Of a DNA stretch of 31,384 bases, positions 106-14,461 are shown piece after piece. The notes beneath the pieces were generated by a model, which did not search any database, had not been told where the DNA came from, and saw only the letters and a program-made list of their open reading frames with translations. Each line of letters begins with the position of its first letter. Position 1 is the stretch's first letter. Location: positions 1 through 31,384 of IMG/VR virus record IMGVR_UViG_3300035698_016670; one strand, 5' to 3'. The DNA comes from a virus. The position numbers were made by a program, and so were the translations under genes.

Positions 106-549
106 TTTACGTTCAGATATATAAAAATAAAAATTATATGTAAAAAACATGGAATATTTGAACAAACACCAGATAATCATATTAATAAAAAAACTGGTTG
201 TCCTATTTGCAATGAAAGTAAAGGAGAAAAAGAAATAAGAATTATTTTAAATAATTTAAATATTAAATATATAAAACAAAAAACATTTAATAATTGTAAA
301 AATAAAAGAAAATTACCATTTGATTTTTATTTGACTGATTATAATTTGTGTATTGAATTTGATGGAATACAACATTTTAAATCAATTGAATATTTTGGTG
401 GTGAAAAAGTATTAAAAGAAACACAAAAAAGAGATTTAATAAAAAATAATTATTGTAAAGAAAATAATATTAAGTTATTAAGAATTAAATATAATGAGAA
501 TATTTTAAAAAAATTAAAAAAATATAATGAAAAAAATAAAATATTTTAA
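100..549 (+). pseudogene. 5'-truncated Vsr-like/DUF723 homing endonuclease
   Basis: This is the C-terminal part of a free-standing homing endonuclease. It keeps one zinc-binding DUF723-type repeat (C14, H17, C34, C37; motif KKHGIFEQTPDNH) followed by a Vsr/EDxHD-like nuclease core (GEKEI, then FDFYL, then CIEFDGIQHF). The closest relative is the 365-residue gene at 19311-20408, which has four repeats; identical stretches include CNESKGEKEI and KENNIKLLRIKYNENI. Here three and a half repeats are missing, and the reading frame starts at a GTG inside the 3' arm of the hairpin at 82-104. I infer that the element removed the original 5' end. The catalytic residues survive, so residual activity is possible. 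Its last 23 nt overlap the start of the next gene. Confidence 0.7.
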
Positions 550-1645
550 TGATTTTTTAAATGAAGTTTTAATTCATCCTGAATGGATAGAACATTTAGA
601 TAATAAAAACTATATAATTATATCATATAATAAGTATATTTATATTTTAGATGAAAAAAAATTAGAGAAAGAAGATTATTTATTAAAATTTTTAAAAGAA
701 TTAAATAATGAACATATTTTGAAAGAATATTTAGAAAATATAAATTATTATGATTTATTAACTATTATTCGAGAAAAATTACCAAATATTATTATATTTA
801 ATTGGGATTTAAAAAATGGAAATTTAAATAATATAGATTATTATGTTAGTAGTTCAGAATTTAAAATAGATATAAATATATCAAAACAATTTATTGAAAC
901 ATTAAAAGTATTAAGATGGAAATTATTTATTGAATATATTAAATGTTATGAATCATATATTGTTTATGATCAAGAACAAGAAAATACTGAATTGTTACAT
1001 ATTGAAACAGTAATTGAAAATTTTTCAAAAGATATTGAAGTTAGAAAATTACCAAAGAAAATATATCATGGAACATCTACTAGAGTAATTAATGAAATTT
1101 TAAAAATTGGTATTAGACGAAATCAAAAATCTAATTTTAAAAATATTTATAGATTTTGTAAATATTTGTTTTTCACATCATCTATAATTGAAGCAACATT
1201 TTATGCCGATAATAGTGCAAGAAAAACAAAATCTTATCCAGTTATTTTAGAAATTGATTCATCTTGTATAGATATTGATAAAGTTGAAAAAGATTATGAT
1301 TTTTATGTTGATTATATAAATCAGGGAAATGAATATTTTGATGATTTATATAGTAACCAGATATATACTGAATCAGAACCTCAATTAATTCATTTACACA
1401 ATAAATATATTGGTGCAACATATAGAAAATTTAGTTATAAAGCAAATATCTACCCAAAATATATTACTAAAATATATTTTCAAAGTGAAATTAATGGAAA
1501 ATTTGATGATTATGTTGAACAAGATCAATTTGATGATTTTTTAGAAATGGTAGATATGTATAATGATGGGGTTTTTGAAGAAATACCATTAAATTTAGAA
1601 ATATGGGAAGAAGAGAAAAGATATTTAGAAGAAGAAAATGAATGA
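527..1645 (+). CDS. Putative ADP-ribosyltransferase with capsid-targeting-like leader
   Basis: A 372-residue protein. Residues 180-184 read YHGTS, followed by a spaced LFFTSS and an A-x-x-YA segment around residues 214-230. This H-G-T ... [ST] ... Y pattern is typical of the NAD-binding pocket of PARP/Tpt1-like ADP-ribosyltransferases. The C-terminal third is acidic. The N-terminus, MKKIKYFNDFLNE, matches the leader shared by other proteins in the window and the T4 capsid-targeting sequence form, with a possible protease cut after LNE. By analogy with T4 Alt it could be packaged and injected to modify host proteins. The ATG is chosen because it gives the leader; it lies inside the end of the upstream endonuclease remnant. 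The fold assignment is from motifs only, and the catalytic Glu/Gln was not placed with certainty. Confidence 0.55.
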   Translation: MKKIKYFNDFLNEVLIHPEWIEHLDNKNYIIISYNKYIYILDEKKLEKEDYLLKFLKELNNEHILKEYLENINYYDLLTIIREKLPNIIIFNWDLKNGNLNNIDYYVSSSEFKIDINISKQFIETLKVLRWKLFIEYIKCYESYIVYDQEQENTELLHIETVIENFSKDIEVRKLPKKIYHGTSTRVINEILKIGIRRNQKSNFKNIYRFCKYLFFTSSIIEATFYADNSARKTKSYPVILEIDSSCIDIDKVEKDYDFYVDYINQGNEYFDDLYSNQIYTESEPQLIHLHNKYIGATYRKFSYKANIYPKYITKIYFQSEINGKFDDYVEQDQFDDFLEMVDMYNDGVFEEIPLNLEIWEEEKRYLEEENE

Positions 1646-1649
1646 TATT

Positions 1650-1680
1650 TTTGTTAAATAAAATAATTTTTATATCTTTG
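1650..1680 (+). promoter_or_regulatory. Bacteroidota-type promoter
   Basis: TTTG at 1650-1653, a 19-nt spacer, then TATCTTTG at 1673-1680. This is a full match to the primary sigma-factor consensus of Bacteroidota (TTTG, 19-21 nt, TAnnTTTG). It lies 29 nt before the start codon at 1710. Confidence 0.75.
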
Positions 1681-1709
1681 TAAAATTATTAATTTAATCA
1701 AAAATTTTA

Positions 1710-2537
1710 ATGGCAAGAAAACCAAAATTAACTCCAATACAACAATTAAATCTATTAGTTAAAGAACGCACAATTTTAAACGAAGAATTATTTGCACGTG
1801 AAGAAAGAGTTCGAAAATTAACTGAAAAAAGAGATTATGAAATTCTCACCAAAAGATTATTTTATTTTGAAAAAATTTATTTGGATATTCCTATTATCAA
1901 TGTAAATTATGGTATAAGAGATTTTCTATATCCTAAAATAGAATTCAATAATAATCAATATGATTTATGTGCTTTTATTATACAATTATCCACCACAGAT
2001 ATTGTATTAAATTATAGTAATTCATATATGAATTCAATAAAATTATCATTAAAATTGAATACAATTAAATTAAATTATTTAAAAACTATTATAGATAGAT
2101 ATTCAATATTTTATACTGATCTTAAAATGTTTACACTTAAAGTTGAAGTAAAATATAATAGGTTAATAGAAGCTTTTAATATAGATACATTTAAAGAAAA
2201 AATAAAGATATTAAGTGATAAAATAAAAATAATAAATGATGAAAAAATAATATCAGAAGGAATGATTTTTTTATCATCTACACAATATTGGTATAATAAA
2301 ACTGAAGGAATAGATGATGATTATAATAGATATCCATCAGCACAATATAAATATGTTGATGAAATCAGAATATTAAGTGCTACAAAAAATATGGTCACAT
2401 TTTATATAAAAAATACAAATATTACACAACTTTCAAAAAGAAAAGTACATTTAAGAAAATTTATGGAAAGAAGAAATTTTAAATTAACAAAACAAAGTAA
2501 AAGAAAATTAAAATTATTAGAAATTATATATTTTTAA
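1710..2537 (+). CDS. Hypothetical protein, 275 aa
   Basis: Not recognised. The N-terminal 50 residues are basic and helical (MARKPKLTPIQQL, then a Lys/Glu/Arg-rich segment suggesting a short coiled coil). The middle is rich in Asn, Tyr and Ile, and the C-terminus is strongly basic (KLTKQSKRKLKLL), which would suit nucleic-acid contact. It has its own host-type promoter just upstream, so early expression is likely. Its 3' end overlaps the convergent gene at 2524-3069 by 14 nt. No membrane segments are seen. Confidence 0.75.
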   Translation: MARKPKLTPIQQLNLLVKERTILNEELFAREERVRKLTEKRDYEILTKRLFYFEKIYLDIPIINVNYGIRDFLYPKIEFNNNQYDLCAFIIQLSTTDIVLNYSNSYMNSIKLSLKLNTIKLNYLKTIIDRYSIFYTDLKMFTLKVEVKYNRLIEAFNIDTFKEKIKILSDKIKIINDEKIISEGMIFLSSTQYWYNKTEGIDDDYNRYPSAQYKYVDEIRILSATKNMVTFYIKNTNITQLSKRKVHLRKFMERRNFKLTKQSKRKLKLLEIIYF

Positions 2538-3069
2538 AATATTTTTTAGTTTTTAAATAAGTGTTTTTAATTGCTTGGATTCCAAATTTATTTATTTCTC
2601 TAGTACCAATTCCAGCATAATGTTTAGTTAATATTGGAGTATTGCAAATAATAAATTTATCATCATTCCAATAAAACCAATTTTTAATTGTTTGATCATA
2701 AACATACACCTCTTTATGATTATCAATAGCCATTATAATTGACCAACCAGTACCTCCAGAGACTTTATTATTTTTAATAACCCCAATTGCATAAATTGTT
2801 TCTGCATTCTTTACTTGCATCCAATTTCGTGCTAATAGATGCATATAATTATCTATATTAGTTCTTTTTAAAATTTTATTAGCTTTATGAATATTTAAAA
2901 TACCTTCTTGATATTCTTCTTCGGTGATTTCATCTTCTTTTTTTGATAATGGATTTGGTTTTTCATACCAATAGTGATTATGATTATTAAATCCATATTC
3001 TCTACCAATTATATCCCATTGAGAATCAGCTCCTAACGCTCCTCCACTATGATTATAAAATGTATTCAT
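2524..3069 (-). CDS. Circularly permuted YpsA-like SLOG protein
   Basis: A 181-residue protein with the two signature loops of SLOG nucleotide-binding Rossmann proteins in swapped order: HSGGALGADSQWD at residues 7-19 and YAGIGTREIN at 151-160. In ordinary SLOG proteins such as YpsA the glycine-rich AGIGSR strand comes first and SGGAxGAD follows, so this arrangement fits the circularly permuted YpsA (cpYpsA) group. Such proteins are predicted to bind nucleotide or NAD-derived ligands and are often found with NAD- or nucleotide-based conflict systems. No effector domain is attached. It is convergent with the upstream neighbour, and a strong hairpin separates it from the next minus-strand gene, so it probably has its own promoter. 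Confidence 0.65.
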   Translation of the reverse strand: MNTFYNHSGGALGADSQWDIIGREYGFNNHNHYWYEKPNPLSKKEDEITEEEYQEGILNIHKANKILKRTNIDNYMHLLARNWMQVKNAETIYAIGVIKNNKVSGGTGWSIIMAIDNHKEVYVYDQTIKNWFYWNDDKFIICNTPILTKHYAGIGTREINKFGIQAIKNTYLKTKKYFKNI

Positions 3070-3106
3070 AAATTTTATAGAAATATTATGAAAAATAGTT
3101 TACATA

Positions 3107-3135
3107 AAAAAACCAGTATTTAGTACTGGTTTTTT
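3107..3135 (-). terminator. Rho-independent terminator
   Basis: A perfect 12-bp stem, AAAAAACCAGTA (3107-3118) with TACTGGTTTTTT (3124-3135), and a 5-nt loop. It sits directly after the stop of the minus-strand gene ending at 3142. The symmetric A/T tails would let it act in both directions. Confidence 0.8.
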
Positions 3136-3141
3136 AATTAG

Positions 3142-3834
3142 TTATTTTGTTCTTTTGTCAATTATATCTTCAATTTCTTCCCAATCTTCAACAAATTTAT
3201 CATTTTTTAATTTTGTTAATAATTGTTTTGTACTATCTTTAGAAAAATCATATTTTCTATCAGTTTTTCCTTTATCTTCTTTGATATCTTTTGTTGCAGC
3301 TTTTTTTGCTTTTTCTATATCTTCCATATCTAATTTTGATAATTCTTCTTTTTCTTTCTTATCAAATTCAGCAAATCTGTCTATTTTTTTCTTTTTCTCT
3401 TTCTTTTCTTTCTTTTCAGATTTTTCTTCTTTCTTTTCTTCTTTTTTAGGAGTTTCTTTATCTTTTTTAGGGGTCTCTTTTATATCTTCATCTTTAATTT
3501 TAGATGTTTTTATATCTTTTTTCTTTCCACCAATAGTAAATAATGCTTTTTTATTTTTATCAGTACTATCAGTTCTTCCAGTTATTTTATATTTTGTTTT
3601 TCCTGGATCATGAATCATATCATCAGCAACTGTTCGAGCTACTTTTTTTAATTCTTTTTCAGTTATATCTTTATCTTTGAATTTTTTCTCAATAGCAAGA
3701 ATCATATCATATCTACCAAGTTCTTTCATTTTTAATTCACTAATAATGAATGTTGTTGCATCTTTTTCTATTTCTTTTTTTGCAGTTGATTTTGCTGCTT
3801 CATTAAGAATGTCATCAAATCTTTTTATTTTCAT
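3142..3834 (-). CDS. Lys/Glu-rich protein with capsid-targeting-like leader
   Basis: A 230-residue, highly charged protein. The leader MKIKRFDDILNE fits the shared form, with a potential prohead-protease site after LNE at residue 12. Residues about 95-175 are an almost uninterrupted run of Lys, Glu and Asp repeats (EKKEEKSEKKEKK-type), expected to be disordered or a single charged helix. The C-terminus is acidic and basic in patches. The composition resembles phage internal head or DNA-associated proteins, but no fold is recognised. It is transcribed with the gene at 3872-4228 (37-nt gap) and ends at a strong terminator. Long frames on the opposite strand are shadows of the low-complexity coding. 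Confidence 0.8.
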   Translation of the reverse strand: MKIKRFDDILNEAAKSTAKKEIEKDATTFIISELKMKELGRYDMILAIEKKFKDKDITEKELKKVARTVADDMIHDPGKTKYKITGRTDSTDKNKKALFTIGGKKKDIKTSKIKDEDIKETPKKDKETPKKEEKKEEKSEKKEKKEKKKKIDRFAEFDKKEKEELSKLDMEDIEKAKKAATKDIKEDKGKTDRKYDFSKDSTKQLLTKLKNDKFVEDWEEIEDIIDKRTK

Positions 3835-3871
3835 AATTTTGTTATTTTTTTTTATATTATCTTCTTATATA

Positions 3872-4228
3872 TTAAATATATTTTCTTAAAATATTGTAAT
3901 AATCTTCAATAGCATCTAATATAAATTGTGGTTCAGTTCCATGATTATTCATATTTTGTATAGCAAATTGTGATATTTCATGAAAACTTGGAATTCTCCA
4001 AGTCCAACTATCTACCATTTCTCCAACACCTTTATCATAAATAGACATTCTTTTTTCTATATTTTTAAATATTTCTTTATCTTCTGGAATATTTGTGGTA
4101 TTTTTTATTTCTTTTAATTGTTTTATTGCTGTTGCTATTTCATTATGATAATTTCCCATAAAATCATCATAAGTTCCTTCATTTATTAATTTAAAATTTT
4201 CATAATTTTCAATATTTTTCATTTTCAC
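3872..4228 (-). CDS. Hypothetical protein with capsid-targeting-like leader
   Basis: A 118-residue protein, not recognised. The N-terminus (MKMKNIENYENFKLINEG) fits the shared leader, with INE as the candidate protease site at residues 15-17. The rest looks mainly helical and soluble, with an aromatic patch (DSWTWRIPSFHE) near residues 80-91. It is the first gene of a two-gene minus-strand unit with 3142-3834 and is divergent from the topoisomerase gene. A TAATATATAAT motif lies about 12-22 nt upstream of the ATG. Confidence 0.75.
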   Translation of the reverse strand: MKMKNIENYENFKLINEGTYDDFMGNYHNEIATAIKQLKEIKNTTNIPEDKEIFKNIEKRMSIYDKGVGEMVDSWTWRIPSFHEISQFAIQNMNNHGTEPQFILDAIEDYYNILRKYI

Positions 4229-4240
4229 TTATTATTTTTA

Positions 4241-4252
4241 ATTATATATTAA
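4241..4252 (-). promoter_or_regulatory. Candidate phage late-type TATATA promoter motif
   Basis: Reads AATATATAAT on the minus strand, just upstream of the gene starting at 4228. Similar motifs precede the genes at 6162, 20408, 20492 and 24453. The motif resembles T4-type late promoters (TATAAATA), but the region is AT-rich and chance matches are expected. Confidence 0.3.
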
Positions 4253-4311
4253 AAAACAAAAACACTTTTTTAAAATATATAGAAAAACATATAAAAAAAT
4301 AAAACAATAAT

Positions 4312-6102
4312 TTGACTAATAAAACAATAGAAGACAAGTATATAAAACTAACTCATAGAGAACATGTTCTACAAAGACCAGATTCATATATTGGTTCAAC
4401 TGAAACAGAATTAAAAGAAACATTTATTGTTGACGATATTACTGATTTTGAAAATATTAAGTTAAATCCTAAAATAGTTAATTTTAATCCCGGATTTTTA
4501 AAAATATTTGATGAGATTATTGTTAATGCATCAGATCAATTTATCAGAACTGGTAAAGTAAAGTATATCAAAGTAATAGTTGAAAAAGATTTTATTTCTA
4601 TTGAAAATGATGGTCCAGGAATACCTATTGAAATTCATAAAGAACATAAAATCCATGTCCCAGAATTGATTTTTGGATATTTACTAACTTCTTCGAACTA
4701 TGATGATACAGAAGAAAGATTAGTTGGGGGTAAAAATGGGATGGGAGCAACTTTAACAAATATTTATTCTAAATTATTTATTGTTGACACAGCAGATGGT
4801 GAAAAATCTTATAAACAAGAATTCTCAAATAATTTAGAGAAAATAGGAAAACCGAAAATTGGTAAATCAAAAAAGAATTTCACAAAAATAACATATTATC
4901 CTGATTTTGAAAAATTTGGTATGACTGAAATTACTGAAGAAATCCAACAAATCATACTAAAAAGAGTTATTGATGTTGCAGTTTATACAAAAATTAAAAT
5001 TTATTATAATGGTAATTTAATACCAATAAAGAATTTTAATGATTATGTGAAATTGCATACTGATAATGAAATATTTTATCAAGATTTATCAAATGGTTGG
5101 GAAGTTGGTGTATCATCAACAAATATTGAAGAATTTCAACATATTAGTTTAGTGAATGGTATAACTACTTATCAAGGAGGCACTCATGTTAATTTTATTA
5201 CAAATCAAATTGTCAATGAATTAAAAACTCAATTAGAGAAAAAACATAAAAAAGTAATAATTAAACCAAATGATATAAAATCTAAATTATTTATATTTTT
5301 AAATACAAAAATAATTAATCCAGATTTTGATACACAAACAAAAGAAACTTTAAAAACAAGATTAACAAATAAACATATTGGTAATATTCAAGTATCTCAA
5401 AAATTGATAAAATCTATTATGAATTCAGAAATCATAGAAGATATCATGAATTATATTGAAATTAGAGAACATGCTGCATTAAAGAAGTTAAATAATGGTA
5501 AGAAAACTAAGATTCGTATTAGGAAATTAGATGATGCTAATAAAGCTGGAACAACAAAATCATTGGATGCCAGCCTATTTCTTGCAGAAGGGGATTCTGC
5601 AATGAGTACAATTATCACTGGATTTTCTTCAACTGGAAGGGATTATTATGGTGTATTCCCATTGAAAGGAAAACCACTTAATGTTAGAAAATCTACAATG
5701 AAAAAGATTTTAGAGAATGATGAAATAAAGAATATTATATCAGCATTGGGATTAGAATTTGGAAAAGATTATAAAGATTTATCTGACCTAAGATATGGTA
5801 AAGTAGTGTTTGCTGGGGATGCTGATTGTGTAGATGGTGAAACATTAATAAAAACAAAATCTGGTATTAAAAAAATTAAAAATTTAACATATGATGACCA
5901 AGTTTTATCTCATAGCGGAGAATATAAGAGAATTTTAAAGATTATTGAAACAAAAAAAGAAAAATATATTGAGATAAAATATAATAATGAAATATTCAAA
6001 TTTAGTGAGTATCATAAAATGATAGTTCAGAGAGATGGTGATATTGAAATTATATTTGCAAAAGATATGTTGAAAACTGATTTGTTGTTATTAAAAAAAT
6101 AA
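4312..6102 (+). CDS. Type IIA DNA topoisomerase, N-terminal part, fused to N-terminal split-intein half
   Basis: Residues 1-505 are the N-extein: a GHKL ATPase domain (VNASDQ, DGPGIP, GGKNGMGA), a transducer region and a TOPRIM domain with catalytic EGDSA (E426) and the metal-binding D503-A504-D505. Sequence style is that of phage T4 gp39 and eukaryotic/NCLDV topoisomerase II. Immediately after DAD, at Cys506 (nt 5827), the protein turns into an intein: block A (CVDGETLIKTKSG) and block B (FSEYHKMIV, S-x-x-H), and it stops after 91 intein residues. Splicing with the product of 7335-9227 would restore the TOPRIM sequence DADCDGTHIKG. The start is TTG; the in-frame stop at 4300 leaves no upstream ATG, and the leader before KLTHREHVLQRPDSYIGS is the usual length. 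Without splicing the TOPRIM domain is incomplete. Confidence 0.93.
   Translation: MTNKTIEDKYIKLTHREHVLQRPDSYIGSTETELKETFIVDDITDFENIKLNPKIVNFNPGFLKIFDEIIVNASDQFIRTGKVKYIKVIVEKDFISIENDGPGIPIEIHKEHKIHVPELIFGYLLTSSNYDDTEERLVGGKNGMGATLTNIYSKLFIVDTADGEKSYKQEFSNNLEKIGKPKIGKSKKNFTKITYYPDFEKFGMTEITEEIQQIILKRVIDVAVYTKIKIYYNGNLIPIKNFNDYVKLHTDNEIFYQDLSNGWEVGVSSTNIEEFQHISLVNGITTYQGGTHVNFITNQIVNELKTQLEKKHKKVIIKPNDIKSKLFIFLNTKIINPDFDTQTKETLKTRLTNKHIGNIQVSQKLIKSIMNSEIIEDIMNYIEIREHAALKKLNNGKKTKIRIRKLDDANKAGTTKSLDASLFLAEGDSAMSTIITGFSSTGRDYYGVFPLKGKPLNVRKSTMKKILENDEIKNIISALGLEFGKDYKDLSDLRYGKVVFAGDADCVDGETLIKTKSGIKKIKNLTYDDQVLSHSGEYKRILKIIETKKEKYIEIKYNNEIFKFSEYHKMIVQRDGDIEIIFAKDMLKTDLLLLKK
5827..6102 (+). other. 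N-terminal half of split intein (Int-N)
   Basis: 91 codons plus stop. The nucleophile Cys1 is encoded at 5827-5829. Splicing block A is CVDGETLIKTKSGIKKI; block B is around EYHKMIV, with the conserved His in an S-x-x-H setting instead of the common T-x-x-H, followed by FAKDMLKTDLLLL, which matches the usual end of block B. It lies between the second Asp of the TOPRIM D-x-D and the following CDG. Length is close to known Int-N pieces. Confidence 0.9.
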
Positions 6103-6120
6103 AAAAAATGACTTTCATTA

Positions 6121-6132
6121 TTTTATATATAA
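6121..6132 (+). promoter_or_regulatory. Candidate TATATA promoter of the intein-embedded endonuclease
   Basis: TTTTATATATAA, about 30 nt upstream of the ATG at 6162, inside the 59-nt gap after the Int-N stop. It would let the endonuclease be transcribed independently of the topoisomerase. Same motif class as before 20492 and 24453. Confidence 0.35.
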
Positions 6133-6161
6133 GTTATGATATAAAAAATAAAGTAACATAA

Positions 6162-7334
6162 ATGAAAAAGAGAAATTATTGGAATTTAGAAACTTGTAAA
6201 GTAGAAGCCCAAAAATATAAAACCAGAAAAGAATATAGTAAAAAAGCAAAGGGTTCATATGAAAAATCAAGAAAAGAAAAATGGTTAGATGAAATATGTT
6301 TGCATATGAAAAAACCAAAAAAGAAATGGACAAAACAACTTTGTATTAAAAAAATTGAATTGTGTTCTTCAAAAGAAGATTTTTATAATAAGTATAATAC
6401 AGCATATCAATATTGTGTTAGAAATAAACTTTTAGATGAAGTGTGTACATCATTAAAACAAAATTACAAATCAAATGGATTTTGGATATTTGAAGAGTGT
6501 TTAAAAATAGCAAAAAAATGTAAAACAAAAAAAGAATTTAGAAACAAATATACACCATACACAAAATCAGCAAAAAACGGTTGGTTAGAGAGAATATATG
6601 AGGAATGTTCTTTTTTAGATGATTATAATAAAGAATGGATTATATATTCATATTTATTTTCAAACAAGTATGTGTATGTTGGGCTTACAATAAATGAAAA
6701 AAGTAGAAAAAGTAATCATTTATCAAATAGTCCAAAAAGCAGTGTATATAAATTCATAATTAAAAATAATATTAAAAAAGAAAATATTAAATATAAAAAA
6801 GAGAAATCTGGTATAACTGATAAAAAAACAATTAAAAAGTTAGAAGGAAAAATATTACAATCATATTTAGATAAAGGTTATCAAAAAATAAATATTAAAA
6901 AGACAGGTAATCTCGGTGGTGGTATACTTATATGGACAAAAGAAAAATGTTTTGATGTTGCAAGGAAATGTTCAACAAAAAAAGAGTTTAGAGAAATATA
7001 TCAAAGTGCTTATAATAATAGTAGAAAAAATAACTGGATAAATGAAATATATGATTTATTTCGTCCTGAAAATAAATATGATAATATAGATTTATGTAGA
7101 GAAGAATCAAAAAAATATAAAAACAAAACTACATTTAAATTAAAAAATCATAATGCATACAAAACTGCATGTGATAATAATTGGATTGATATGTTTTTTC
7201 CAAAATTTGATTTTTTAGAAAAAGCAATTAAAAACTTCAATAAGACAAAAACAAATAAAGAGTTTAGAGTATTATATCCAAATGATTATGATTATTTTTT
7301 GAGACATAAACTTTTAAAAAAATATAAAAAATAA
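6162..7334 (+). CDS. Free-standing GIY-YIG homing endonuclease with six DNA-binding repeats
   Basis: A 390-residue protein. The GIY-YIG nuclease core occupies about residues 159-245: IIYSYLF and VYVGLT (I161-Y162 ... Y172-V173-G174), R182, H186 and catalytic E228 in KKLEGKIL. It is flanked by three copies before (7-48, 56-97, 108-147) and three after (258-300, 307-346, 351-388) of a roughly 40-residue repeat of the form W-x-x-E-x-C-x(3)-A-x-K-C-x-T-K-K-E-F-R, then Y, ending N-x-W-L-x-E-I. These repeats are common in phage mobile endonucleases and are presumed DNA-binding. The gene lies exactly between the two intein halves: 59 nt after the Int-N stop, and its own stop abuts the ATG of the Int-C gene (TAAATG). 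It presumably cuts intein-free topoisomerase alleles and drives homing of the whole cassette. GIY-YIG enzymes are rare partners for inteins. Confidence 0.88.
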   Translation: MKKRNYWNLETCKVEAQKYKTRKEYSKKAKGSYEKSRKEKWLDEICLHMKKPKKKWTKQLCIKKIELCSSKEDFYNKYNTAYQYCVRNKLLDEVCTSLKQNYKSNGFWIFEECLKIAKKCKTKKEFRNKYTPYTKSAKNGWLERIYEECSFLDDYNKEWIIYSYLFSNKYVYVGLTINEKSRKSNHLSNSPKSSVYKFIIKNNIKKENIKYKKEKSGITDKKTIKKLEGKILQSYLDKGYQKINIKKTGNLGGGILIWTKEKCFDVARKCSTKKEFREIYQSAYNNSRKNNWINEIYDLFRPENKYDNIDLCREESKKYKNKTTFKLKNHNAYKTACDNNWIDMFFPKFDFLEKAIKNFNKTKTNKEFRVLYPNDYDYFLRHKLLKKYKK

Positions 7335-7487
7335 ATGAATATAAACATAGATGATTATTTTTTGGTGTCCCCAGATAGCATAGAAATAAAAAACACAACA
7401 ACAGAATTATATTATGATATTGAAGTTGAAGATGATAATACATTTTATTTAGTTACAAAAAACGATAAATTATTATTAACACATAAT
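7335..7487 (+). other. C-terminal half of split intein (Int-C)
   Basis: 51 residues starting at the ATG. Block F reads YDIEVEDDNTFYLV (residues 27-40) and block G reads LLLTHN (46-51), with the conserved penultimate His and terminal Asn. The next codon, TGT at 7488, gives Cys as the +1 extein nucleophile. It is longer than the 36-residue Int-C of cyanobacterial DnaE inteins, so the break lies further upstream. Together with Int-N it makes a 142-residue mini-intein. Confidence 0.92.
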
Positions 7488-9227
7488 TGTGATGGGACTC
7501 ACATTAAAGGGCTCTTGATAAATCTGTTTGAAAATTACTGGAAATCACTACTGTCATTGGATTTTCTCTATGATTTTGTGACACCTATTGTCAAAATTGA
7601 AAAAGGTAAAAAATCTAAATTCTTCTACAAATTAAATGATTATGATAAATGGAAGAAAACTAACACAACTGGTTGGTTTGTGACATATTACAAAGGTTTA
7701 GGGACAATAGAACCACATGAAATAAAAGAATTTTTTAAAGATATTGATAAATTTTTAATACCATTCCAATATGATAATGACCCACACGATATTGTGGATA
7801 TGGTTTTCAATGAAAAAAGAACAAATGATAGAAAAAATTGGTTGAGTAATTATCAACCAGGTATAGTAGTTGATAAATTTTCTGAAAAAACAACTTATGA
7901 AACATTTTTTAATAAAGAATTTATTGAATTTTCAATGATAGATAATCTTCGCTCAATTCCTTCTGTTGTTGATGGTTTTAAACCAAGTCAAAGAAAAATT
8001 CTCTATACTCTATTTAAAAAGAATTATAAAAATAAAATAAAGGTCAGTCAATGTGCAAGTGACACGGCATCTAATACAGCATATCATCATGGGAATGTTA
8101 GTTTAGAAGGCACAATCATAAATATGGCTCAGGATTTTGTTGGAACAAATAATATAAATTTACTACAACCAAAAGGAGCATTTGGGACACGTTTAAAAGG
8201 TGGTAAAGATGCTGCAAGTTCAAGATATATTTTCACACAATTATCAGAAATATCTACAAATATTTTTAAACCAGATGATAATCAAATTTTAAATTATTTA
8301 AATGATGATGGATTTCCAATTGAACCAGAATATTATGTACCAATTATTCCAATGGTATTAGTTAATGGTGCAGAAGGTATTGGTACAGGTTGGTCAACAA
8401 CAGTCATTAAATATAATCCAGTTGATATTATAAAATATTTAGTTTTTAAATTAAAAAATCAAAAAACAATTAAATTAATTCCATGGTTTAAAAATTTTAA
8501 AGGGAAAGTTTATTTTGATTCTGAAAAATCAAGATGGGTTACACAAGGAATTATAAATAAAAAGAGTAATTCAATATTACATATTAAAGAATTACCAATT
8601 GGAATGTGGAATGATAAATATTATACGATATTAGATGAATTAGAAGATAATAAAATTATTAAAAAATACACTAAAAATGATACTGATATAAAAGTTGACA
8701 TTATTATAACTGTTGATAGAACAAATATGAAAAATATTGAAAAAGATTTAATTAAAATATTTAAATTAGAAACTTATTTTTCTATAAATAATCAAATATT
8801 ATTTGATGCAGATAATAAAATAAAACATTATAAAACAGTAGATGATATTATATCAGACTTTTTAGATATTAGATTAGAATATTATCAAAAAAGAAAAGAT
8901 TTTATTTTAAATAAATTGGAACAAGATAGATTTATGTTAATTAATAAAATGAAATTTATAAATGAAATATTAAAGGGAACATTAACAATTCAAAATAAAA
9001 AACGTCAAGATATTGAAAATAATTTAGAGATATTAAAAATTTCGAAAATAGATAATTCATATGGTTATTTATTAAATATGAGCATATTAACATTAACAAA
9101 TGAAAAATTATTAGAATTAAAAGAAATTTTTAATAAGAAGAAAGAAGAAATAAATATTATTAATAATACATCTATAAAACAAATTTGGTTAAAAGAATTA
9201 AATATCTTATATAAAAAATTAAACTAA
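7335..9227 (+). CDS. C-terminal split-intein half fused to type IIA topoisomerase C-terminal part
   Basis: Residues 1-51 are Int-C; residues 52-630 are the C-extein. This begins CDGTHIKGLLINLF (end of TOPRIM) and continues into the breakage-reunion core: FIEFSMIDNLRSIPSVVDGFKPSQRKILY, then NTAYHHGNVSLEGTIINMAQ, and the active-site Tyr298 in DAASSRYIFTQL (Tyr 752 of the spliced 1,084-residue enzyme). GyrB-like and GyrA-like halves are on one chain, as in eukaryotic and NCLDV topoisomerase II, whereas T4 uses separate subunits. The C-terminus is a coiled-coil/tower-like region ending at the stop, with no long tail. The ATG directly follows the endonuclease stop, suggesting translational coupling. 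Function needs protein trans-splicing with 4312-6102. Confidence 0.93.
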   Translation: MNINIDDYFLVSPDSIEIKNTTTELYYDIEVEDDNTFYLVTKNDKLLLTHNCDGTHIKGLLINLFENYWKSLLSLDFLYDFVTPIVKIEKGKKSKFFYKLNDYDKWKKTNTTGWFVTYYKGLGTIEPHEIKEFFKDIDKFLIPFQYDNDPHDIVDMVFNEKRTNDRKNWLSNYQPGIVVDKFSEKTTYETFFNKEFIEFSMIDNLRSIPSVVDGFKPSQRKILYTLFKKNYKNKIKVSQCASDTASNTAYHHGNVSLEGTIINMAQDFVGTNNINLLQPKGAFGTRLKGGKDAASSRYIFTQLSEISTNIFKPDDNQILNYLNDDGFPIEPEYYVPIIPMVLVNGAEGIGTGWSTTVIKYNPVDIIKYLVFKLKNQKTIKLIPWFKNFKGKVYFDSEKSRWVTQGIINKKSNSILHIKELPIGMWNDKYYTILDELEDNKIIKKYTKNDTDIKVDIIITVDRTNMKNIEKDLIKIFKLETYFSINNQILFDADNKIKHYKTVDDIISDFLDIRLEYYQKRKDFILNKLEQDRFMLINKMKFINEILKGTLTIQNKKRQDIENNLEILKISKIDNSYGYLLNMSILTLTNEKLLELKEIFNKKKEEINIINNTSIKQIWLKELNILYKKLN

Positions 9228-9234
9228 TTTAAAA

Positions 9235-9270
9235 CTGATTTTTTTATTTAATATATAATAAAAAAATCAG
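9235..9270. terminator. Bidirectional hairpin terminator after topoisomerase
   Basis: A perfect 14-bp inverted repeat: CTGATTTTTTTATT (9235-9248) and AATAAAAAAATCAG (9257-9270), with an 8-nt loop. It starts 8 nt after the topoisomerase stop and ends 5 nt before the hemerythrin ATG. The loop region contains TTAATATATAA, so it may also carry a late-type promoter. The G+C content of the stem is low, so termination strength is uncertain. Confidence 0.5.
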
Positions 9271-9275
9271 AAATT

Positions 9276-9644
9276 ATGTTAGATTTTAAATATAAATTAG
9301 GAATTCCAGTTATTGATTATCAACACAAACAATTATTAACAATATTAAATAAATTAGAACAAAAAATATTAAATAAGAAACAATTGCGAAATATAATTTT
9401 ACAACTTAAAGATTGTGCAGTTTATCATTTTAAAACAGAAGAAGAATATTTTAAAAATAATAACTATAAAAATATGAAAGAACATATTCAATTACATAAT
9501 ATATATATACAAACAATAGATTATTATTGTTCTGGTAATAATTATGATCAAAATAAAATTTATACATTTTTATCAACTTGGTTTAAAAAACATGTCCTTA
9601 TTGAAGATAAAAAAATTATTATTAAAGAAACTTTAAAAAAATAA
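9276..9644 (+). CDS. Bacteriohemerythrin (di-iron, O2-binding protein)
   Basis: A 122-residue single-domain hemerythrin. All seven canonical di-iron ligands are present with normal spacing: H17 (IDYQHKQL), H51 and E55 (HFKTEEEYF), H70 and H74 (HIQLH), H106 and D111 (WFKKHVLIED). The length is standard for a bare bacteriohemerythrin. In bacteria these proteins store or deliver oxygen, or act as O2 sensors when fused to signalling domains. The gene is 19 nt upstream of the membrane-anchored PAS protein, and the two probably form one transcription unit. Hemerythrins are unusual in phages, so acquisition from a host is inferred, although base composition matches the neighbours. Confidence 0.9.
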   Translation: MLDFKYKLGIPVIDYQHKQLLTILNKLEQKILNKKQLRNIILQLKDCAVYHFKTEEEYFKNNNYKNMKEHIQLHNIYIQTIDYYCSGNNYDQNKIYTFLSTWFKKHVLIEDKKIIIKETLKK

Positions 9645-9662
9645 AAAAAAACGATATAAATA

Positions 9663-10688
9663 ATGGATGTATTATTAAAATTATTAGAATTTCTTGAAAA
9701 TTTTCCAATTGAATGGAAAATTGTATTTTCTATAATATTTATATTATTATGGTTATTATGGTTTTTTAAAAAACCATTATTTAAATGGATTAAATGTTTA
9801 AAAAATAAAAAAAGAAATAAATATTCTTTTTTAAATCATAAAATATTTTGTGAAAAAACATTTGTTTATCATACTATTAGTATGATAAACGTTGGAGTAC
9901 CAGAGAAATCATATATATTTCGTAGAATATTAAAAAATATGTATGATTCTATATTATATTTTTCTAAAGAATTAATAACAAATGATAAAATTTATAATTT
10001 ATCTAATAATCAATTTTATGCATTAGTAATAAAAAATATTACAAATATAGTAAATGATTATAATGATAAAATATTAAAAGAATTTGGTCAAGAACTTTAT
10101 AATTTAGTTATGGTTCATGAAAAAAAAGGATTTAATATTCATCATGAAAAAACAATACTTTTCATTAAAAATGTAGTAGAAGAAGCATTTGAAAATGATA
10201 ATATTGTTTATTCAACAGTAGAACATAAAATAGATTATTTATTAGATTTATATTGTATTGCTATGAAAATTGCTATGAGTGATGTTGATAAATTATATAA
10301 AAATTTTAATGGAGAATTAGAAAAAATATTAGATTTAGATATAAAAAATGAAGAATATTATCATTTTTTCGCAGAAGCATCAACAGAAGCATTATTTTTT
10401 TCTAAAAATGGAGTTTGTATAGATTGTAATAAAAGAGCCGCAGAAATGTTTGGATATTTAACAGTTAAAGAATTTTTAAAAAATATTGGGATATTTAAAA
10501 TTAATATTATTGATTCTAAATATCATGATTTAGTATCAAAACATATGAAAAATAATCTTTTAGAACCATATGATGCAATTGGTATTAAAAAAAATGGCAC
10601 AACATTTAAAATTTCAATAAGAGCTAAATTAATACCTTTTAAAAATAAAGGAATAGTAAGATCAACCTCAATTATAGATATTTCCTAA
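9663..10688 (+). CDS. Membrane-anchored PAS-domain protein
   Basis: A 341-residue protein. One hydrophobic helix near residues 17-36 (IVFSIIFILLWLLWFF) is followed by basic residues, giving a single N-terminal membrane anchor with the bulk probably cytoplasmic. Residues about 60-230 are helical and unrecognised. Residues about 233-341 are a PAS domain: EASTEALFFSKNGVCIDCNK, AAEMFGY, then GIKKNGTTFKISIRAKLIP. No kinase, GGDEF or other output domain follows, so it is a sensor without visible effector. Adjacent to the hemerythrin, it suggests an oxygen/redox-sensing pair. The last codons are duplicated as an exact 20-bp tandem repeat after the stop. Confidence 0.8.
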   Translation: MDVLLKLLEFLENFPIEWKIVFSIIFILLWLLWFFKKPLFKWIKCLKNKKRNKYSFLNHKIFCEKTFVYHTISMINVGVPEKSYIFRRILKNMYDSILYFSKELITNDKIYNLSNNQFYALVIKNITNIVNDYNDKILKEFGQELYNLVMVHEKKGFNIHHEKTILFIKNVVEEAFENDNIVYSTVEHKIDYLLDLYCIAMKIAMSDVDKLYKNFNGELEKILDLDIKNEEYYHFFAEASTEALFFSKNGVCIDCNKRAAEMFGYLTVKEFLKNIGIFKINIIDSKYHDLVSKHMKNNLLEPYDAIGIKKNGTTFKISIRAKLIPFKNKGIVRSTSIIDIS

Positions 10689-10708
10689 CAATTATAGATA
10701 TTTCCTAA
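10669..10708 (+). repeat. Exact 20-bp tandem duplication spanning the PAS gene stop
   Basis: Two abutting copies of CAATTATAGATATTTCCTAA (10669-10688 and 10689-10708). The first contains the last codons and the stop of the PAS gene. It looks like a recent slippage duplication. Confidence 0.9.
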
Positions 10709-10782
10709 CCATTTTCAATAAAATATTAATAAAATATTAATTATCTTTAAACAATTATAAAAAAAGATATTATAATAATTAA

Positions 10783-11070
10783 ATGAAGTTATTAAAAGAT
10801 TATAATAAAACAATTAAAAAAATTTATGAGTATTTTGATTATACTAGTGGAGATTCAATTTATCCAATAGAAGATTATACAGATTATTTTTGGAAAATAA
10901 CAGATTCAATTATTTATTATTCAGATGATGATGTTAATTTAGATATGGATTTTATAGAAGATGAATTTTTAGAATCTTGTGATGGTGATGATTATGTAAT
11001 GTTTTTAATTAAAGATTCATTAAATTTAGATAATAATTGTTTAATGATTTTTGAAAAATTAAGAGAATAA
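10783..11070 (+). CDS. Small acidic hypothetical protein
   Basis: A 95-residue protein, not recognised. It is strongly acidic from residue 20 on (DYTSGD, YSDDDVNLDMDFIEDEFLESCDGDD) with many Tyr and Phe, which is the composition of DNA-mimic or inhibitor proteins, but this is speculation. The first residues (MKLLKDYNK) faintly resemble the capsid-targeting-like leader but lack the [LI]-N-E end. The stop is followed directly by the ATG of the nucleotide kinase gene (TAAATG), so the two are translationally coupled. Confidence 0.7.
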   Translation: MKLLKDYNKTIKKIYEYFDYTSGDSIYPIEDYTDYFWKITDSIIYYSDDDVNLDMDFIEDEFLESCDGDDYVMFLIKDSLNLDNNCLMIFEKLRE

Positions 11071-11622
11071 ATGATAATTGGGATTAGTGGACAAATTGGA
11101 TCGGGAAAGGACGCAGTAACTAAAAAAATTATTGAAACATTTCCAGAAATGAATTTTAAATCTTATGCTTTTGGATATAATGTTAAAAAAGTTGTATCTT
11201 TGCTCACAGGTGTAAATTTAAAAGTTGTATTATCTCGACAAGGAAAACTAATTTATTTATCCAAATGGGGAATGACTATTGGTGAAATGTTTCAAAAACT
11301 TGCTTCTGATGCAATTAGAGAAAAATTTCATGAAGATGCATGGATAATATCATTATTTAATAATTTGAAAAATGATGAAAATATTATAATAACGGATGTA
11401 AGATTTTTAAATGAAGCAGAATATATTTTAAATCGTGGAGGATATTTAATTAGATTAGTAGGAGATCCAAAAAATATAAATAAAACAGATGAAAGAGATA
11501 ATAACCATTATTCAGAAACAGAATTAGATAATTTTAATAAATTTGATATAATTTATAATAATATACCACCAATAAATAATTTAAATAAATTAATAATGAT
11601 AATAAAGAAGAAATTATTTTAA
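11071..11622 (+). CDS. Deoxynucleoside monophosphate kinase (T4 gp1-like)
   Basis: A 183-residue P-loop kinase. The Walker A sequence is GISGQIGSGKDAV near residues 3-15, followed by FKSYAFGYNVKK, which matches the substrate-binding region of phage T4 gp1-type dNMP kinases. ITDVRFLNEAE near residues 109-119 is the conserved D-V-R-F motif of the family. The enzyme phosphorylates dNMPs to dNDPs for phage DNA synthesis and allows use of modified nucleotides in some phages. Length is somewhat shorter than T4 gp1. It is coupled to the acidic protein upstream. A short piece of this gene (around 11277-11301) is repeated at 11935-11970. Confidence 0.85.
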   Translation: MIIGISGQIGSGKDAVTKKIIETFPEMNFKSYAFGYNVKKVVSLLTGVNLKVVLSRQGKLIYLSKWGMTIGEMFQKLASDAIREKFHEDAWIISLFNNLKNDENIIITDVRFLNEAEYILNRGGYLIRLVGDPKNINKTDERDNNHYSETELDNFNKFDIIYNNIPPINNLNKLIMIIKKKLF

Positions 11623-11651
11623 AATAAAGATGAAAGATAAAAAAATTTATT

Positions 11652-11659
11652 TATCTTTG
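11652..11659 (+). promoter_or_regulatory. Bacteroidota-type -7 box
   Basis: TATCTTTG 29 nt upstream of the ATG at 11689. No TTTG is present at the usual upstream position, so only the -7 element is supported. Confidence 0.6.
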
Positions 11660-11688
11660 CAAGACTATAAATTAAAAAATTTGAAAAT

Positions 11689-11931
11689 ATGAATTATAAT
11701 GAAACAAAAGAAAAATTATTAAATATTAAAGATAAAATTATTAAATTATTAGAAACTCACAATGTTTCAGCGAATAATGAAAATCATATTATAACATCTG
11801 AAATATTGGATTTATTTTATGAAGTGCAACAAAGTGGTAAGTTTATCTGTTTTTCTTGTGGTTCATTGGATTGTAAAAAATTTGATGGTGGAATATTATG
11901 TAATAAATGTTTACATTGGCAATCAGTTTAA
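11689..11931 (+). CDS. Small zinc-finger protein
   Basis: An 80-residue protein. The first 50 residues are helical. Residues 54-75 hold a four-cysteine zinc ribbon: C-F-S-C-G, then C in LDCKKF, then C-N-K-C, the last pair forming a C-x-x-C knuckle (GGILCNKCLHW). Such small ribbon proteins in phages often bind nucleic acid or transcription proteins; no specific role is visible. It is expressed from its own host-type promoter, consistent with early expression. Confidence 0.75.
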   Translation: MNYNETKEKLLNIKDKIIKLLETHNVSANNENHIITSEILDLFYEVQQSGKFICFSCGSLDCKKFDGGILCNKCLHWQSV

Positions 11932-11934
11932 TTA

Positions 11935-11970
11935 TGTTCATTGATGAAATGTTTCAAAAACTTATTTAAA
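11935..11970 (+). repeat. Fragmentary duplicate of the dNMP kinase gene
   Basis: A mini-frame encoding MFIDEMFQKLI, in which GAAATGTTTCAAAAACTT (11946-11963) is identical to 11284-11301 in the kinase gene (TIGEMFQKLA). The flanking bases also agree partly. It is too short to be a gene and is probably a recombination scar. Confidence 0.5.
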
Positions 11971-11998
11971 AAAAACTTTTTATTTAAAATAATTTATT

Positions 11999-12006
11999 TA
12001 TCTTTG
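11999..12006 (+). promoter_or_regulatory. Bacteroidota-type -7 box
   Basis: TATCTTTG followed by CAAAACTG, 86 nt before the ATG at 12093. The surroundings (TTTATTTATCTTTGCAA) are nearly identical to 11646-11661. It would give an mRNA with an unusually long leader of about 80 nt. Confidence 0.6.
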
Positions 12007-12092
12007 CAAAACTGAAGAAATATTAATATCCATTAATGATTATTTAGACGTTATCAAATAAACTTATAAAACTGAGAATAAATTAAAAAAAT

Positions 12093-13688
12093 ATGAAAAT
12101 AAAAGATAAATTTAAAAAAGTACCTGGAATGGGCACTAAAAATATACCTACTATGGTATTAAAAGATTTAATTGTCAGTCAAGAGATTCATGAAAAATTA
12201 TCTGATTGTATAATTGAAATGATTACATCAACAAAGATGCCATATTATGGAGAATTTACACAAGCAATCAATTTTACACAAGCACAAATACCAACATGTG
12301 GAGTAAATGTTACTGATAAAGGAATGAATTTTTATTGGGGTAAAGAATTTATTGAAAATTGTAATAGAAAAGAAGTTTTATTCACAATTATTCATGAAGT
12401 TTTTCACTTAATATTTGATCATCATAAACGTGGTATGGGATACGATAAAAAAATATCAAACCTGGCAGCAGATATGATTATTAACTCTATTATTCATGGT
12501 GAAATGATGATTGCAGAAAATTTAACTAATGTAATTGAAATACCAAAAGATGAATTAGGAAATAATACTTGTGTATTTCTTTCCAAAGATTATCGAGGTG
12601 CGCCAATTTTTGAAGATGTTTATTTTTGGTTAATGGATCAATATAATGATTGGAGAAATAAAAATTCTGATAAATTAGATAAACAAGCAAAAGTTGATAA
12701 AGATGGAAATGTTACTATTAATGGTCAAAAATATTGTGGAAAATGTGGACAAAAAATAGATGGAAAAGATGGAAAAGATGGAAAAGATGGTCAAGAAAGC
12801 GATAAAGAAGGTCAAGGTTCTGGAAAAGATTGTTGTGATAAATGTGGTCAAGAAAAACAAGATGGTCAAGGTTCTGGTCAAGGACAAGGAGAAGGAGAAC
12901 CACAAGATGGTCAAGGTCAAAGTAGTGGTTATGGAAATAATGGTCAATCAGGGGATAAAAGAGAAAATGATGTTGATATGTATCCTGTTGAAAGATTTTT
13001 TGAAAATATTGAATATAATAAAGGTCAAAGTTTTGATATTCATTTTGATGATGATGTTCCAGAAGCAGTTAGAAAACAATGGGTTAATTCACAAATAGAA
13101 AAGTTAAAAGCAAGAGGTTTAGAATCTGGTTCTGTTGAAAAAATTCTAAATAAACTTCAAAAAACAGAAAAAGATTATCTTAAAGAAATTAAAAGAACTA
13201 TTAGTAATGATATATTTGGTTCTAAAAAACAAAAATCTATTACTAAATTGAATAGAAGAGGTATTGAAGGATTAAAAGGACAAAGAAAATACAAAACAAG
13301 AATAAATTGTTTGTTAGATACTTCTGGTTCTATGAGTGGAGATTTTGAAAAAGTATTGTCTTATATATTTCAAAATGATATTGAAATAAATTTAATACAA
13401 GTTGATACTCAAATTCAAGAAGTACTTCATATTAAAAGAAAACGAGATCTTGAAAAAATGAAAATACATGGATTAGGTGGAACAACATTAACTCCAGGAT
13501 TACAATATATTGTGGCTGATAAAAAATTAAATAAATTAAATACTGTAATTCTTACAGATGGTTATACAGATAGTCTTGATATAACAGGAATTAAAGGAAA
13601 AATTTTAGTTTTATCAACAAATACAGAATGTCCATTAGTATATAATTCAAGTAAAATTAAACAAATAATAATTGATAAATCAAAATAA
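12093..13688 (+). CDS. VWA-like metalloprotein (DUF2201-type) partner of MoxR ATPase
   Basis: A 531-residue protein. The N-terminal zinc-peptidase-like domain contains HEVFH (H101-E102 ... H105) and a following LAADMIIN helix, as in DUF2201 proteins. The centre has two Cys pairs (C215/C218 and C248/C251) separated by a Gly-rich, collagen-like stretch (GKDGKDGKDG), then a long Gly/Gln/Ser linker to about residue 290. The C-terminal VWA-like domain has the MIDAS motif DTSGSMSG (D409-T-S-G-S413) and TDG near the end. Proteins of this layout are paired with MoxR AAA+ ATPases, found here at 14515-15777, and act in metal-dependent maturation or disassembly of complexes. Frames on the other strand in 12675-13098 are shadows of the repeat. 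Confidence 0.85.
   Translation: MKIKDKFKKVPGMGTKNIPTMVLKDLIVSQEIHEKLSDCIIEMITSTKMPYYGEFTQAINFTQAQIPTCGVNVTDKGMNFYWGKEFIENCNRKEVLFTIIHEVFHLIFDHHKRGMGYDKKISNLAADMIINSIIHGEMMIAENLTNVIEIPKDELGNNTCVFLSKDYRGAPIFEDVYFWLMDQYNDWRNKNSDKLDKQAKVDKDGNVTINGQKYCGKCGQKIDGKDGKDGKDGQESDKEGQGSGKDCCDKCGQEKQDGQGSGQGQGEGEPQDGQGQSSGYGNNGQSGDKRENDVDMYPVERFFENIEYNKGQSFDIHFDDDVPEAVRKQWVNSQIEKLKARGLESGSVEKILNKLQKTEKDYLKEIKRTISNDIFGSKKQKSITKLNRRGIEGLKGQRKYKTRINCLLDTSGSMSGDFEKVLSYIFQNDIEINLIQVDTQIQEVLHIKRKRDLEKMKIHGLGGTTLTPGLQYIVADKKLNKLNTVILTDGYTDSLDITGIKGKILVLSTNTECPLVYNSSKIKQIIIDKSK
12753..12942 (+). repeat. Gly-rich coding repeats (GKD and GQG units) inside the VWA gene
   Basis: Codon-level repeats of GGAAAAGAT (Gly-Lys-Asp) at about 12763-12790, then many GGTCAAG(GT) units encoding Gly-Gln-Gly. 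This is low-complexity coding, likely a flexible linker between the peptidase-like and VWA domains, interrupting a Cys4 zinc ribbon. Confidence 0.75.
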
Positions 13689-13703
13689 TATAATAAATTA
13701 ATT

Positions 13704-13896: not shown

Positions 13897-13962
13897 AAAA
13901 AATTGAACTTTTCTAAAAAATTAAAATATACAAAATAAATAAAAATAAATAAAATAAAAATT

Positions 13963-14436: not shown

Positions 14437-14453
14437 TTTTTAAATTTTTTTAT

Positions 14454-14461
14454 TATCTTTG
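14454..14461 (+). promoter_or_regulatory. Bacteroidota-type -7 box
   Basis: TATCTTTG followed by CAATCTG, 53 nt upstream of the ATG at 14515 and directly after the tandem repeats. The -33 position falls within T-rich sequence without a clear TTTG. Confidence 0.6.

What the first reader, a model, noticed from the sequence alone, without database searches (positions are those of the whole stretch)
4312..9227. Topoisomerase gene fractured by a split intein with a free-standing GIY-YIG endonuclease gene in the break
Seen: the TOPRIM motif D-A-D is followed by a 91-residue Int-N and a stop; a complete GIY-YIG gene follows; the next gene starts with a 51-residue Int-C ending in THN, then CDGTHIKG. 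The two exteins join into a continuous 1,084-residue type IIA topoisomerase. Known: fractured genes with split inteins flanking endonuclease genes have been described mainly from environmental phage DNA, as I recall with Vsr-like endonucleases. A GIY-YIG partner and a topoisomerase host seem new or rare. The insertion lies within the metal-binding motif, so the phage enzyme depends on trans-splicing.
Basis: partly seen in the sequence, partly recalled or inferred. Interest (0 to 1): 0.92.

Follow-up and report, generated by a model that had tools for sequence, protein, structure and literature searches.

The report
Split-intein topoisomerase with swappable nuclease genes
A large bacterial virus makes its essential DNA-untangling enzyme as two separate proteins that should join themselves through a split intein, and the gap between the two gene halves is a parking place that different DNA-cutting 'homing' genes have entered, left and replaced one another in during evolution.

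Summary
A type IIA topoisomerase is broken between the second and third aspartates of its TOPRIM metal-binding motif (GDAD|CDG) into ExtN-IntN (4312-6102) and IntC-ExtC (7335-9227), with a GIY-YIG-type nuclease gene (6162-7334) between. A second public contig is 100% identical over 15.7 kb. The joined exteins align gap-free with uninterrupted phage topoisomerases. The intein's nearest solved relatives include split inteins of the 'fractured gene' class (gp41-1, AceL NrdHF-1).

Extein and intein trees disagree strongly, and close relatives alternate between occupied and empty sites. A second split-intein site (EGD|SA) occurs in the same enzyme family.

Best reading: a mobile split intein that splices in trans while its homing nucleases turn over. 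The kind of element (fractured gene) is known. The topoisomerase site, GIY-YIG partner, nuclease swapping, antisense nucleases and cargo make it a new variant. Splicing and homing are inferred, not shown.

The parts
4312..5826 (+). N-extein: ATPase (GHKL) domain, transducer and first part of TOPRIM of a single-chain type IIA topoisomerase, ending FAGDAD
   Evidence: Pfam DNA_gyraseB 2e-20, Toprim 4e-6; gap-free junction with intact homologues
5827..6099 (+). Int-N (91 aa, Cys1, block B His63); stop codon 6100-6102
   Evidence: TIGR01445 E 0.0019; phmmer to gp41-1 6qaz and AceL NrdHF-1 6zgq; invariant C1/H63 in relatives
6103..6161 (+). 59-nt leader of the nuclease gene with promoter-like motif TTTATATATAA at 6122-6132
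   Evidence: Motif TTWATATATAA 11 times in window against 1.5 expected; within 70 nt upstream of 7 of 31 genes against 0.4 in shuffles; weak hairpin, z -1.5
6162..7334 (+). Free-standing GIY-YIG-type homing nuclease (390 aa): catalytic domain 6642-6910 flanked by three-helix repeats; stop codon abuts the ATG of the next gene
   Evidence: PF01541 E 0.001; phrog_20046 4e-30; conserved GIY-YIG catalytic positions; helical repeats in AlphaFold model, catalytic domain low confidence
7335..7487 (+). Int-C (51 aa): block F-like YYDIEVEDDNTF, block G LLLTHN
   Evidence: TIGR01443 17.3 bits against cut-off 15.6; invariant HN|C in relatives
7488..9227 (+). C-extein: CDGTHIKG (third TOPRIM Asp), TOPRIM_C and DNA breakage-reunion domain (GyrA-like)
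   Evidence: Pfam DNA_topoisoIV 1e-107, TOPRIM_C 5e-33; eukaryotic-type Top2 structures best in PDB, E 1e-140

Best explanation
This is a mobile split intein in the TOPRIM active site of a large-phage single-chain topoisomerase II, of the 'fractured gene' kind. The two gene halves are translated separately. IntN and IntC associate, Cys1 and Cys+1 carry out the acyl shifts, Asn cyclisation frees the intein, and an unscarred 1,084-aa topoisomerase results (inferred from sequence). The gene in the break is a homing nuclease, here GIY-YIG, that should cut uninterrupted topoisomerase alleles of co-infecting phages, so that repair copies IntN-nuclease-IntC into them (inferred). Once split, the intein cannot be dropped without a precise repair event. 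The nuclease is therefore free to decay, be lost or be replaced while the split intein stays, and the break becomes a reusable docking site for unrelated nucleases and occasional cargo (shown by comparison).
For: Trans-splicing anatomy: gap-free joined exteins against intact homologues; intein profile hits at both halves; nearest solved relatives include split inteins gp41-1 and AceL NrdHF-1; catalytic residues invariant over inteins as little as about 40% identical; codon differences concentrated at third positions. Mobility: exteins of occupied loci are not one clade (AU p 0.0012) and the window's nearest rows L004 and L005 are empty. L025/L034/L035/L037 inteins form a 100/100 clade while their exteins reject it (p 4e-60). 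L025 and L033 exteins are 83% identical but IntN only 36% (intein clade rejected, p 0.0016). L035 against empty L008 drops from 84% to 68% identity within 80 residues of the site (p 8e-6), while L008-L027 does not drop there, the footprint expected of co-conversion. Nuclease turnover at one site: GIY-YIG (window), Vsr-like (L006, L038; model matches 1vsr, probability 1.0), truncated Vsr (L033), scar (L003, 17-nt exact match to L033 nuclease, none of 2,000 shuffles above 15), antisense HNH (L025, L035, L037), antisense CapR/DUF723 (L034), none (L077).
Against: No splicing or cleavage has been observed. Block B lacks the usual Thr (SEYH here, G in some relatives) and the block F His is absent, so splicing might be slow. 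The GIY-YIG profile match is below the Pfam cut-off. Phage enzymes can work as unspliced pieces (T4 topoisomerase, Aeh1 NrdA; PMC2988022). The co-conversion dip has no identified donor and could be local adaptation after insertion. The 9-row intein tree has one well-supported branch only.
Confidence: 0.87

Rival explanations
1. Gene in pieces without splicing: the halves assemble non-covalently into an active topoisomerase, and the intein halves are relics or act only as association tails, as with T4 gp39/gp60 (mobA insertion) or Aeh1 NrdA (mobE).
For: Exact precedent for a phage topoisomerase split by a homing nuclease and still working (PMC2988022). Non-canonical block B and F residues.
Against: Cys1, block B His, HN and Cys+1 are retained in relatives down to about 40% intein identity, and changes fall mostly at third codon positions. 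A 91-aa tail would end inside the metal-binding loop between two of its aspartates. No occupied locus lacks the intein residues.
Confidence: 0.08
2. A trans-splicing split intein that is no longer mobile: the GIY-YIG gene is an unrelated free-standing nuclease that used the intergenic gap as a neutral site and does not home into topoisomerase.
For: The nuclease varies between loci while the intein persists. T4 free-standing nucleases often cut far from their insertion site (PMC2988022). The window's nuclease family has relatives elsewhere in these genomes.
Against: Intein, extein and presence data show repeated movement of the cassette. HNH nucleases track related inteins across distant exteins (L025/L035/L037). 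This rival could still be true for the window's own nuclease.
Confidence: 0.2
3. Sequencing or assembly artefact, or a degenerate pseudogene.
For: Metagenomic contigs only.
Against: Identical 15.7 kb in a second contig; same architecture in nine diverged loci; no frameshift or stop inside either half.
Confidence: 0.01

Closest known systems
'Fractured genes' (Dassa et al. 2009, NAR 37:2560, PMC2677866; known here from citations and memory, text not held)
   Same: Conserved DNA-metabolism enzyme broken by a split intein with a free-standing nuclease gene between the halves; environmental phages; Vsr/EDxHD nucleases in several of our relatives; control elements upstream of the nuclease; solved relatives of the intein (gp41-1, AceL NrdHF-1) are of this class.
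   Different: Host is topoisomerase II at the TOPRIM DxD motif; GIY-YIG partner; one homologous intein shown with several nuclease families, antisense nucleases, decay states and R-M cargo. Whether topoisomerase or GIY-YIG was among the 26 published loci could not be checked.
T4 topoisomerase genes 60/39 split by mobA (PMC2988022)
   Same: Phage type IIA topoisomerase gene interrupted by a free-standing homing nuclease.
   Different: No intein; pieces stay separate and assemble non-covalently; HNH nuclease.
Aeromonas phage Aeh1 nrdA-a/mobE/nrdA-b (PMC3653736, PMC2988022)
   Same: Essential phage gene in two pieces around a nuclease gene under its own controls.
   Different: No intein halves; mobE is HNH.
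GyrB inteins such as Ssp GyrB (from memory: at EGD|SAGG)
   Same: TOPRIM active-site insertion; the second split site found here (L007, L020: EGD|SA) is the equivalent position.
   Different: Contiguous intein with an internal nuclease domain; the window's site is DAD|C instead.
I-TevI, segB and Aeh1 mobE control by RNA hairpin plus late promoter (PMC2988022, PMC3014915)
   Same: L006 and L038 have a strong hairpin just upstream of or over the nuclease start with an AT-rich promoter-like motif in the loop (z -3.3 and -4.0).
   Different: Window has the motif but only a weak hairpin; function not tested.

Membership tests
Fractured gene (split intein + free-standing nuclease) | Conserved enzyme gene broken in two, halves jointly covering the whole intact homologue | tested here: met
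   1,084-aa join, no gap against intact homologues
Fractured gene (split intein + free-standing nuclease) | Each half carries one intein half with splicing residues | tested here: met
   TIGR01445/TIGR01443, C1, H63, HN, Cys+1
Fractured gene (split intein + free-standing nuclease) | Separate nuclease gene between the halves | tested here: met
   390-aa ORF with GIY-YIG catalytic positions
Fractured gene (split intein + free-standing nuclease) | Protein trans-splicing | not testable with these tools
   Needs co-expression and mass spectrometry
Fractured gene (split intein + free-standing nuclease) | Homing of the cassette into empty alleles | tested here: inconclusive
   Phylogenetic signs of horizontal movement; no cleavage assay
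GIY-YIG homing endonuclease | Catalytic domain recognised by PF01541 | tested here: inconclusive
   E 0.001, 19.8 bits against cut-off 22.6; model of this domain low confidence and no PDB match
GIY-YIG homing endonuclease | Catalytic Tyr, Tyr-x-Gly, Arg, Glu, Asn at I-TevI-like spacing (spacing from memory) | tested here: met
   Y162, Y172, G174, R182, E228, N244 invariant in alignment A6
T4-type split topoisomerase without intein | No intein sequences at the break | tested here: not met
   Both intein halves present
EDxHD/Vsr-like nuclease (relative L006, not the window) | Vsr fold | tested here: met
   Foldseek top hits 1vsr (probability 1.00, E 0.006) and 1cw0, although overall model confidence is low

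The most novel reading that the evidence does not exclude
The break in this topoisomerase is a stable, splice-protected docking site. The split intein makes insertions of any length, in either orientation, harmless to the essential enzyme, so unrelated homing nucleases succeed one another there and cargo, here an EcoRI-type restriction-modification pair, can ride along. The split intein plus its variable interior would then be a composite mobile element rather than an intein with a resident nuclease.
Probability: 0.5. Interest if true: 0.77.

Novelty: new variant of a known kind. Interest (0 to 1): 0.64.

Why it matters
It gives one homologous split intein, at one residue of one enzyme, caught in most stages of a life cycle: empty site, occupied by each of several unrelated nucleases, nuclease half-deleted, nuclease reduced to a 17-nt scar, and cargo added. 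That makes two open questions testable: how split inteins persist once their nuclease is gone, and whether nucleases and inteins evolve as separable partners. It also shows why annotation misses these genes: the topoisomerase appears as two fragments with an intervening ORF. Practically, it adds a set of diverged, naturally split inteins with a Cys+1 junction and halves of about 91 and 50 residues.

Tried and rejected
Assembly artefact: rejected. Naturally separate B and A subunits: rejected, because the break is inside the TOPRIM motif, whereas a true two-subunit form (L009) breaks elsewhere. Readthrough making L003 a contiguous intein: L003 has four in-frame TAA between its halves and TAA ends its other genes, so rejected. 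TATAAATA (T4 late promoter) in the window: not enriched, 17 against 17 expected; TTWATATATAA is. Structure of the GIY-YIG ORF: flanking helical repeats confident, catalytic domain poor, no PDB match. Close relatives of the window's nuclease in IMG/VR by short-peptide scan: only the twin contig. A gapped local alignment of the L003 scar to the L033 nuclease is not significant (score 23, shuffles reach 25); only the 17-nt exact match is. Genome (GTDB) scan: no occupied locus, only distant topoisomerases. Fused IntN-IntC could not be folded because only contiguous translated sequences may be submitted. No group I intron search was run; a trans-split intron was not considered further because intein blocks explain both edges.
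Full report
What is there. The window is a 31-kb record of virus DNA with 22% G+C. At 4312-9227 three consecutive genes lie on the + strand. The first encodes 505 residues of a type IIA topoisomerase ending FAGDAD, followed by 91 residues that begin with Cys and match the intein N-terminal profile. The second encodes 390 residues with a GIY-YIG-type catalytic region between helical repeats. The third begins with 51 residues ending LLLTHN, which match the intein C-terminal profile, and continues CDGTHIKG through the rest of the topoisomerase. The joined extein is 1,084 aa and is of the eukaryotic-type single-chain kind: the C-extein's best PDB matches are Top2 enzymes at E 1e-140, far above gyrase. 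The cut falls between the residues equivalent to yeast 528 and 529, because ExtC residue 2 aligns to position 530 of 4gfh. Two of the three metal-binding aspartates are therefore on one chain and the third on the other.

It is real. A second IMG/VR contig is identical over window 488-16224. Scans with the halves and with alignments brought in many homologues. Uninterrupted homologues (L004, L005, L008, L018, L022, L023, L027, L029, L061, L066, L067, L069) read straight through the site, and joined exteins align to the eight of them tested without a single gap at the junction. L004 is the nearest, 73% identical over the join.

The same split intein elsewhere. Nine further loci have IntN and, where the contig reaches, IntC at exactly this position: L003, L006, L025, L033, L034, L035, L037, L038 and the very divergent L077, whose topoisomerase is of the two-subunit kind. 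In the nine loci that were aligned (all but L077), IntN ends at the same residue, within one to three. The contents differ. The window has GIY-YIG. L006 and L038 have a zinc-finger plus Vsr/EDxHD nuclease on the sense strand (model matches E. coli Vsr 1vsr with probability 1.0, although the model is poor overall). L033 has only the C-terminal end of such a nuclease right behind IntN. L003 has a 66-nt gap holding TATTGGCATTGTAATCC, the codons for YWHCNP of the L033 nuclease (17-nt exact match; 2,000 shuffles reach 15 at most). L025, L035 and L037 have an HNH nuclease on the opposite strand. L034 has an antisense ORF of CapR/DUF4379/DUF723 repeats, which is the architecture reported for EDxHD/Vsr-like homing nucleases in phage group II introns (PMC12350094). 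L077 has nothing. L035 carries in addition a D12-class adenine methyltransferase and an EcoRI-family restriction enzyme inside the break.

Movement. On the extein tree the occupied site needs at least five changes. The window sits inside a trio with two empty relatives, and L035 inside one with empty L008 and L027. One clade for all occupied exteins is rejected (AU p 0.0012), and one for L025+L034+L035+L037 is rejected overwhelmingly. Yet those four inteins form a 100/100 clade. Conversely L025 and L033 have exteins 83% identical, IntN 36% identical and unrelated nucleases, and the intein data reject them as sisters (p 0.0016). L025 and L034 have inteins 78% identical in IntN but different nucleases. 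So the intein moves between topoisomerases, and nucleases change within inteins. L035 against its empty relative L008 falls from 84% to 68% identity within 80 residues of the site (p 8e-6), while L008-L027 does not drop there. This is what co-conversion during homing would leave, though the donor is not identified. Empty L061 shares L035's unusual flank ADADCDGNHIRG. The window-L004 pair shows no such dip.

How it most likely works. Shown: anatomy, conservation of splicing residues over inteins down to roughly 40% identity, excess of third-position changes, patchy distribution and tree conflict. Inferred: IntN and IntC pair, splice in trans and restore the TOPRIM site; the nuclease cuts empty alleles in mixed infections and repair copies the cassette; after fixation the nuclease decays but the split intein remains because the enzyme needs it. 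Expression: the nuclease has its own promoter-like motif at 6122-6132, about 30 nt before its ATG. The motif TTWATATATAA is enriched in the window (11 against 1.5 expected) and lies upstream of 7 of 31 genes (0.4 in shuffles). In L006 and L038 the motif is in the loop of a strong hairpin next to the nuclease start (z -3.3, -4.0); in the window the hairpin is weak (z -1.5). T4 I-TevI, segB and Aeh1 mobE are silenced in early transcripts by such hairpins and expressed from a late promoter (PMC2988022, PMC3014915). For the sense-strand nucleases of the window, L006, L038, L007 and L020, the IntC ATG overlaps or abuts the nuclease stop, suggesting translational coupling of the second half; this is an inference.

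Comparison with the known. The organisation is that of the fractured genes of Dassa et al. 2009, which I could not open and know from citations and memory; PMC3653736 records that nrdA and nrdJ were among their hosts. Single-sequence and profile searches put the window's intein near split inteins of that class. Phage topoisomerase genes split by a nuclease without an intein are known in T4 (mobA, PMC2988022). I found no held paper describing a split-intein topoisomerase with GIY-YIG, nor a split intein with restriction-modification genes inside, but the held library lacks most subscription journals. I therefore rate this a new variant of a known kind.

Second site. L007 and L020/L021 have a different split intein in the same enzyme at EGD|SA, with a Vsr-like nuclease (phrog_22677 for L020) and, in L020, a 170-residue IntN with an apparent internal repeat. 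Two of the large phage contigs with an empty topoisomerase (L018, L024) carry a further split intein half before SLYLSF, probably a DNA polymerase.

Noticed in passing
L035:7331-10936: An EcoRI-family restriction enzyme and a D12 adenine methyltransferase, next to an antisense HNH nuclease, sit inside the split-intein break of the topoisomerase gene.
   Followed up: yes
L020:3553-8785, L007:1-3591: Second split-intein site in the same topoisomerase at EGD|SA with a Vsr-like nuclease; L020 IntN is 170 aa with a second block B-like repeat (NNHLFSIF).
   Followed up: partly
L049/L050 (344-kb and 348-kb phage contigs of L018/L024): Another split intein C-half (LVHN|SLYLSF) with a 396-aa ORF before it, probably a fractured DNA polymerase gene.
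   Followed up: no
L077:4111-6522: The same-site split intein in a very different phage with a two-subunit topoisomerase and no nuclease between the halves; the gyrA-like gene lies antisense next to it.
   Followed up: partly
L061:4516-7866: Empty site but with the rare flank ADADCDGNHIRG shared with occupied L035: possible past occupant or donor background.
   Followed up: no
window 19311-20408 (-) and 100-549 (+): ORFs with DUF723/DUF4379/CapR and DUF559/DUF2726 matches, probably further homing-type nucleases.
   Followed up: no
window 1673, 11652, 11999, 14454, 16470 (+): TATCTTTGYA occurs 5 times against 0.5 expected, four of them shortly upstream of genes; it resembles the Bacteroidota -7 element TAnnTTTG, suggesting a Bacteroidota host.
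   Followed up: partly
window 527-1645 (+): Weak ADP-ribosyltransferase/KptA-like match (PARP fold), phrog_11974.
   Followed up: no
window 16501-17295 (+): Only the C-terminal half of an NAD-dependent DNA ligase (LigA residues ~391-649) as a separate gene.
   Followed up: no
window 12093-13688 and 14515-15777 (+): CobT/VWA-metallopeptidase-like protein followed by a phage AAA ATPase (phrog_1297): possible MoxR-VWA pair.
   Followed up: no
window 9276-10688 (+): Hemerythrin and PAS-domain proteins directly downstream of the topoisomerase, unusual for a phage.
   Followed up: no
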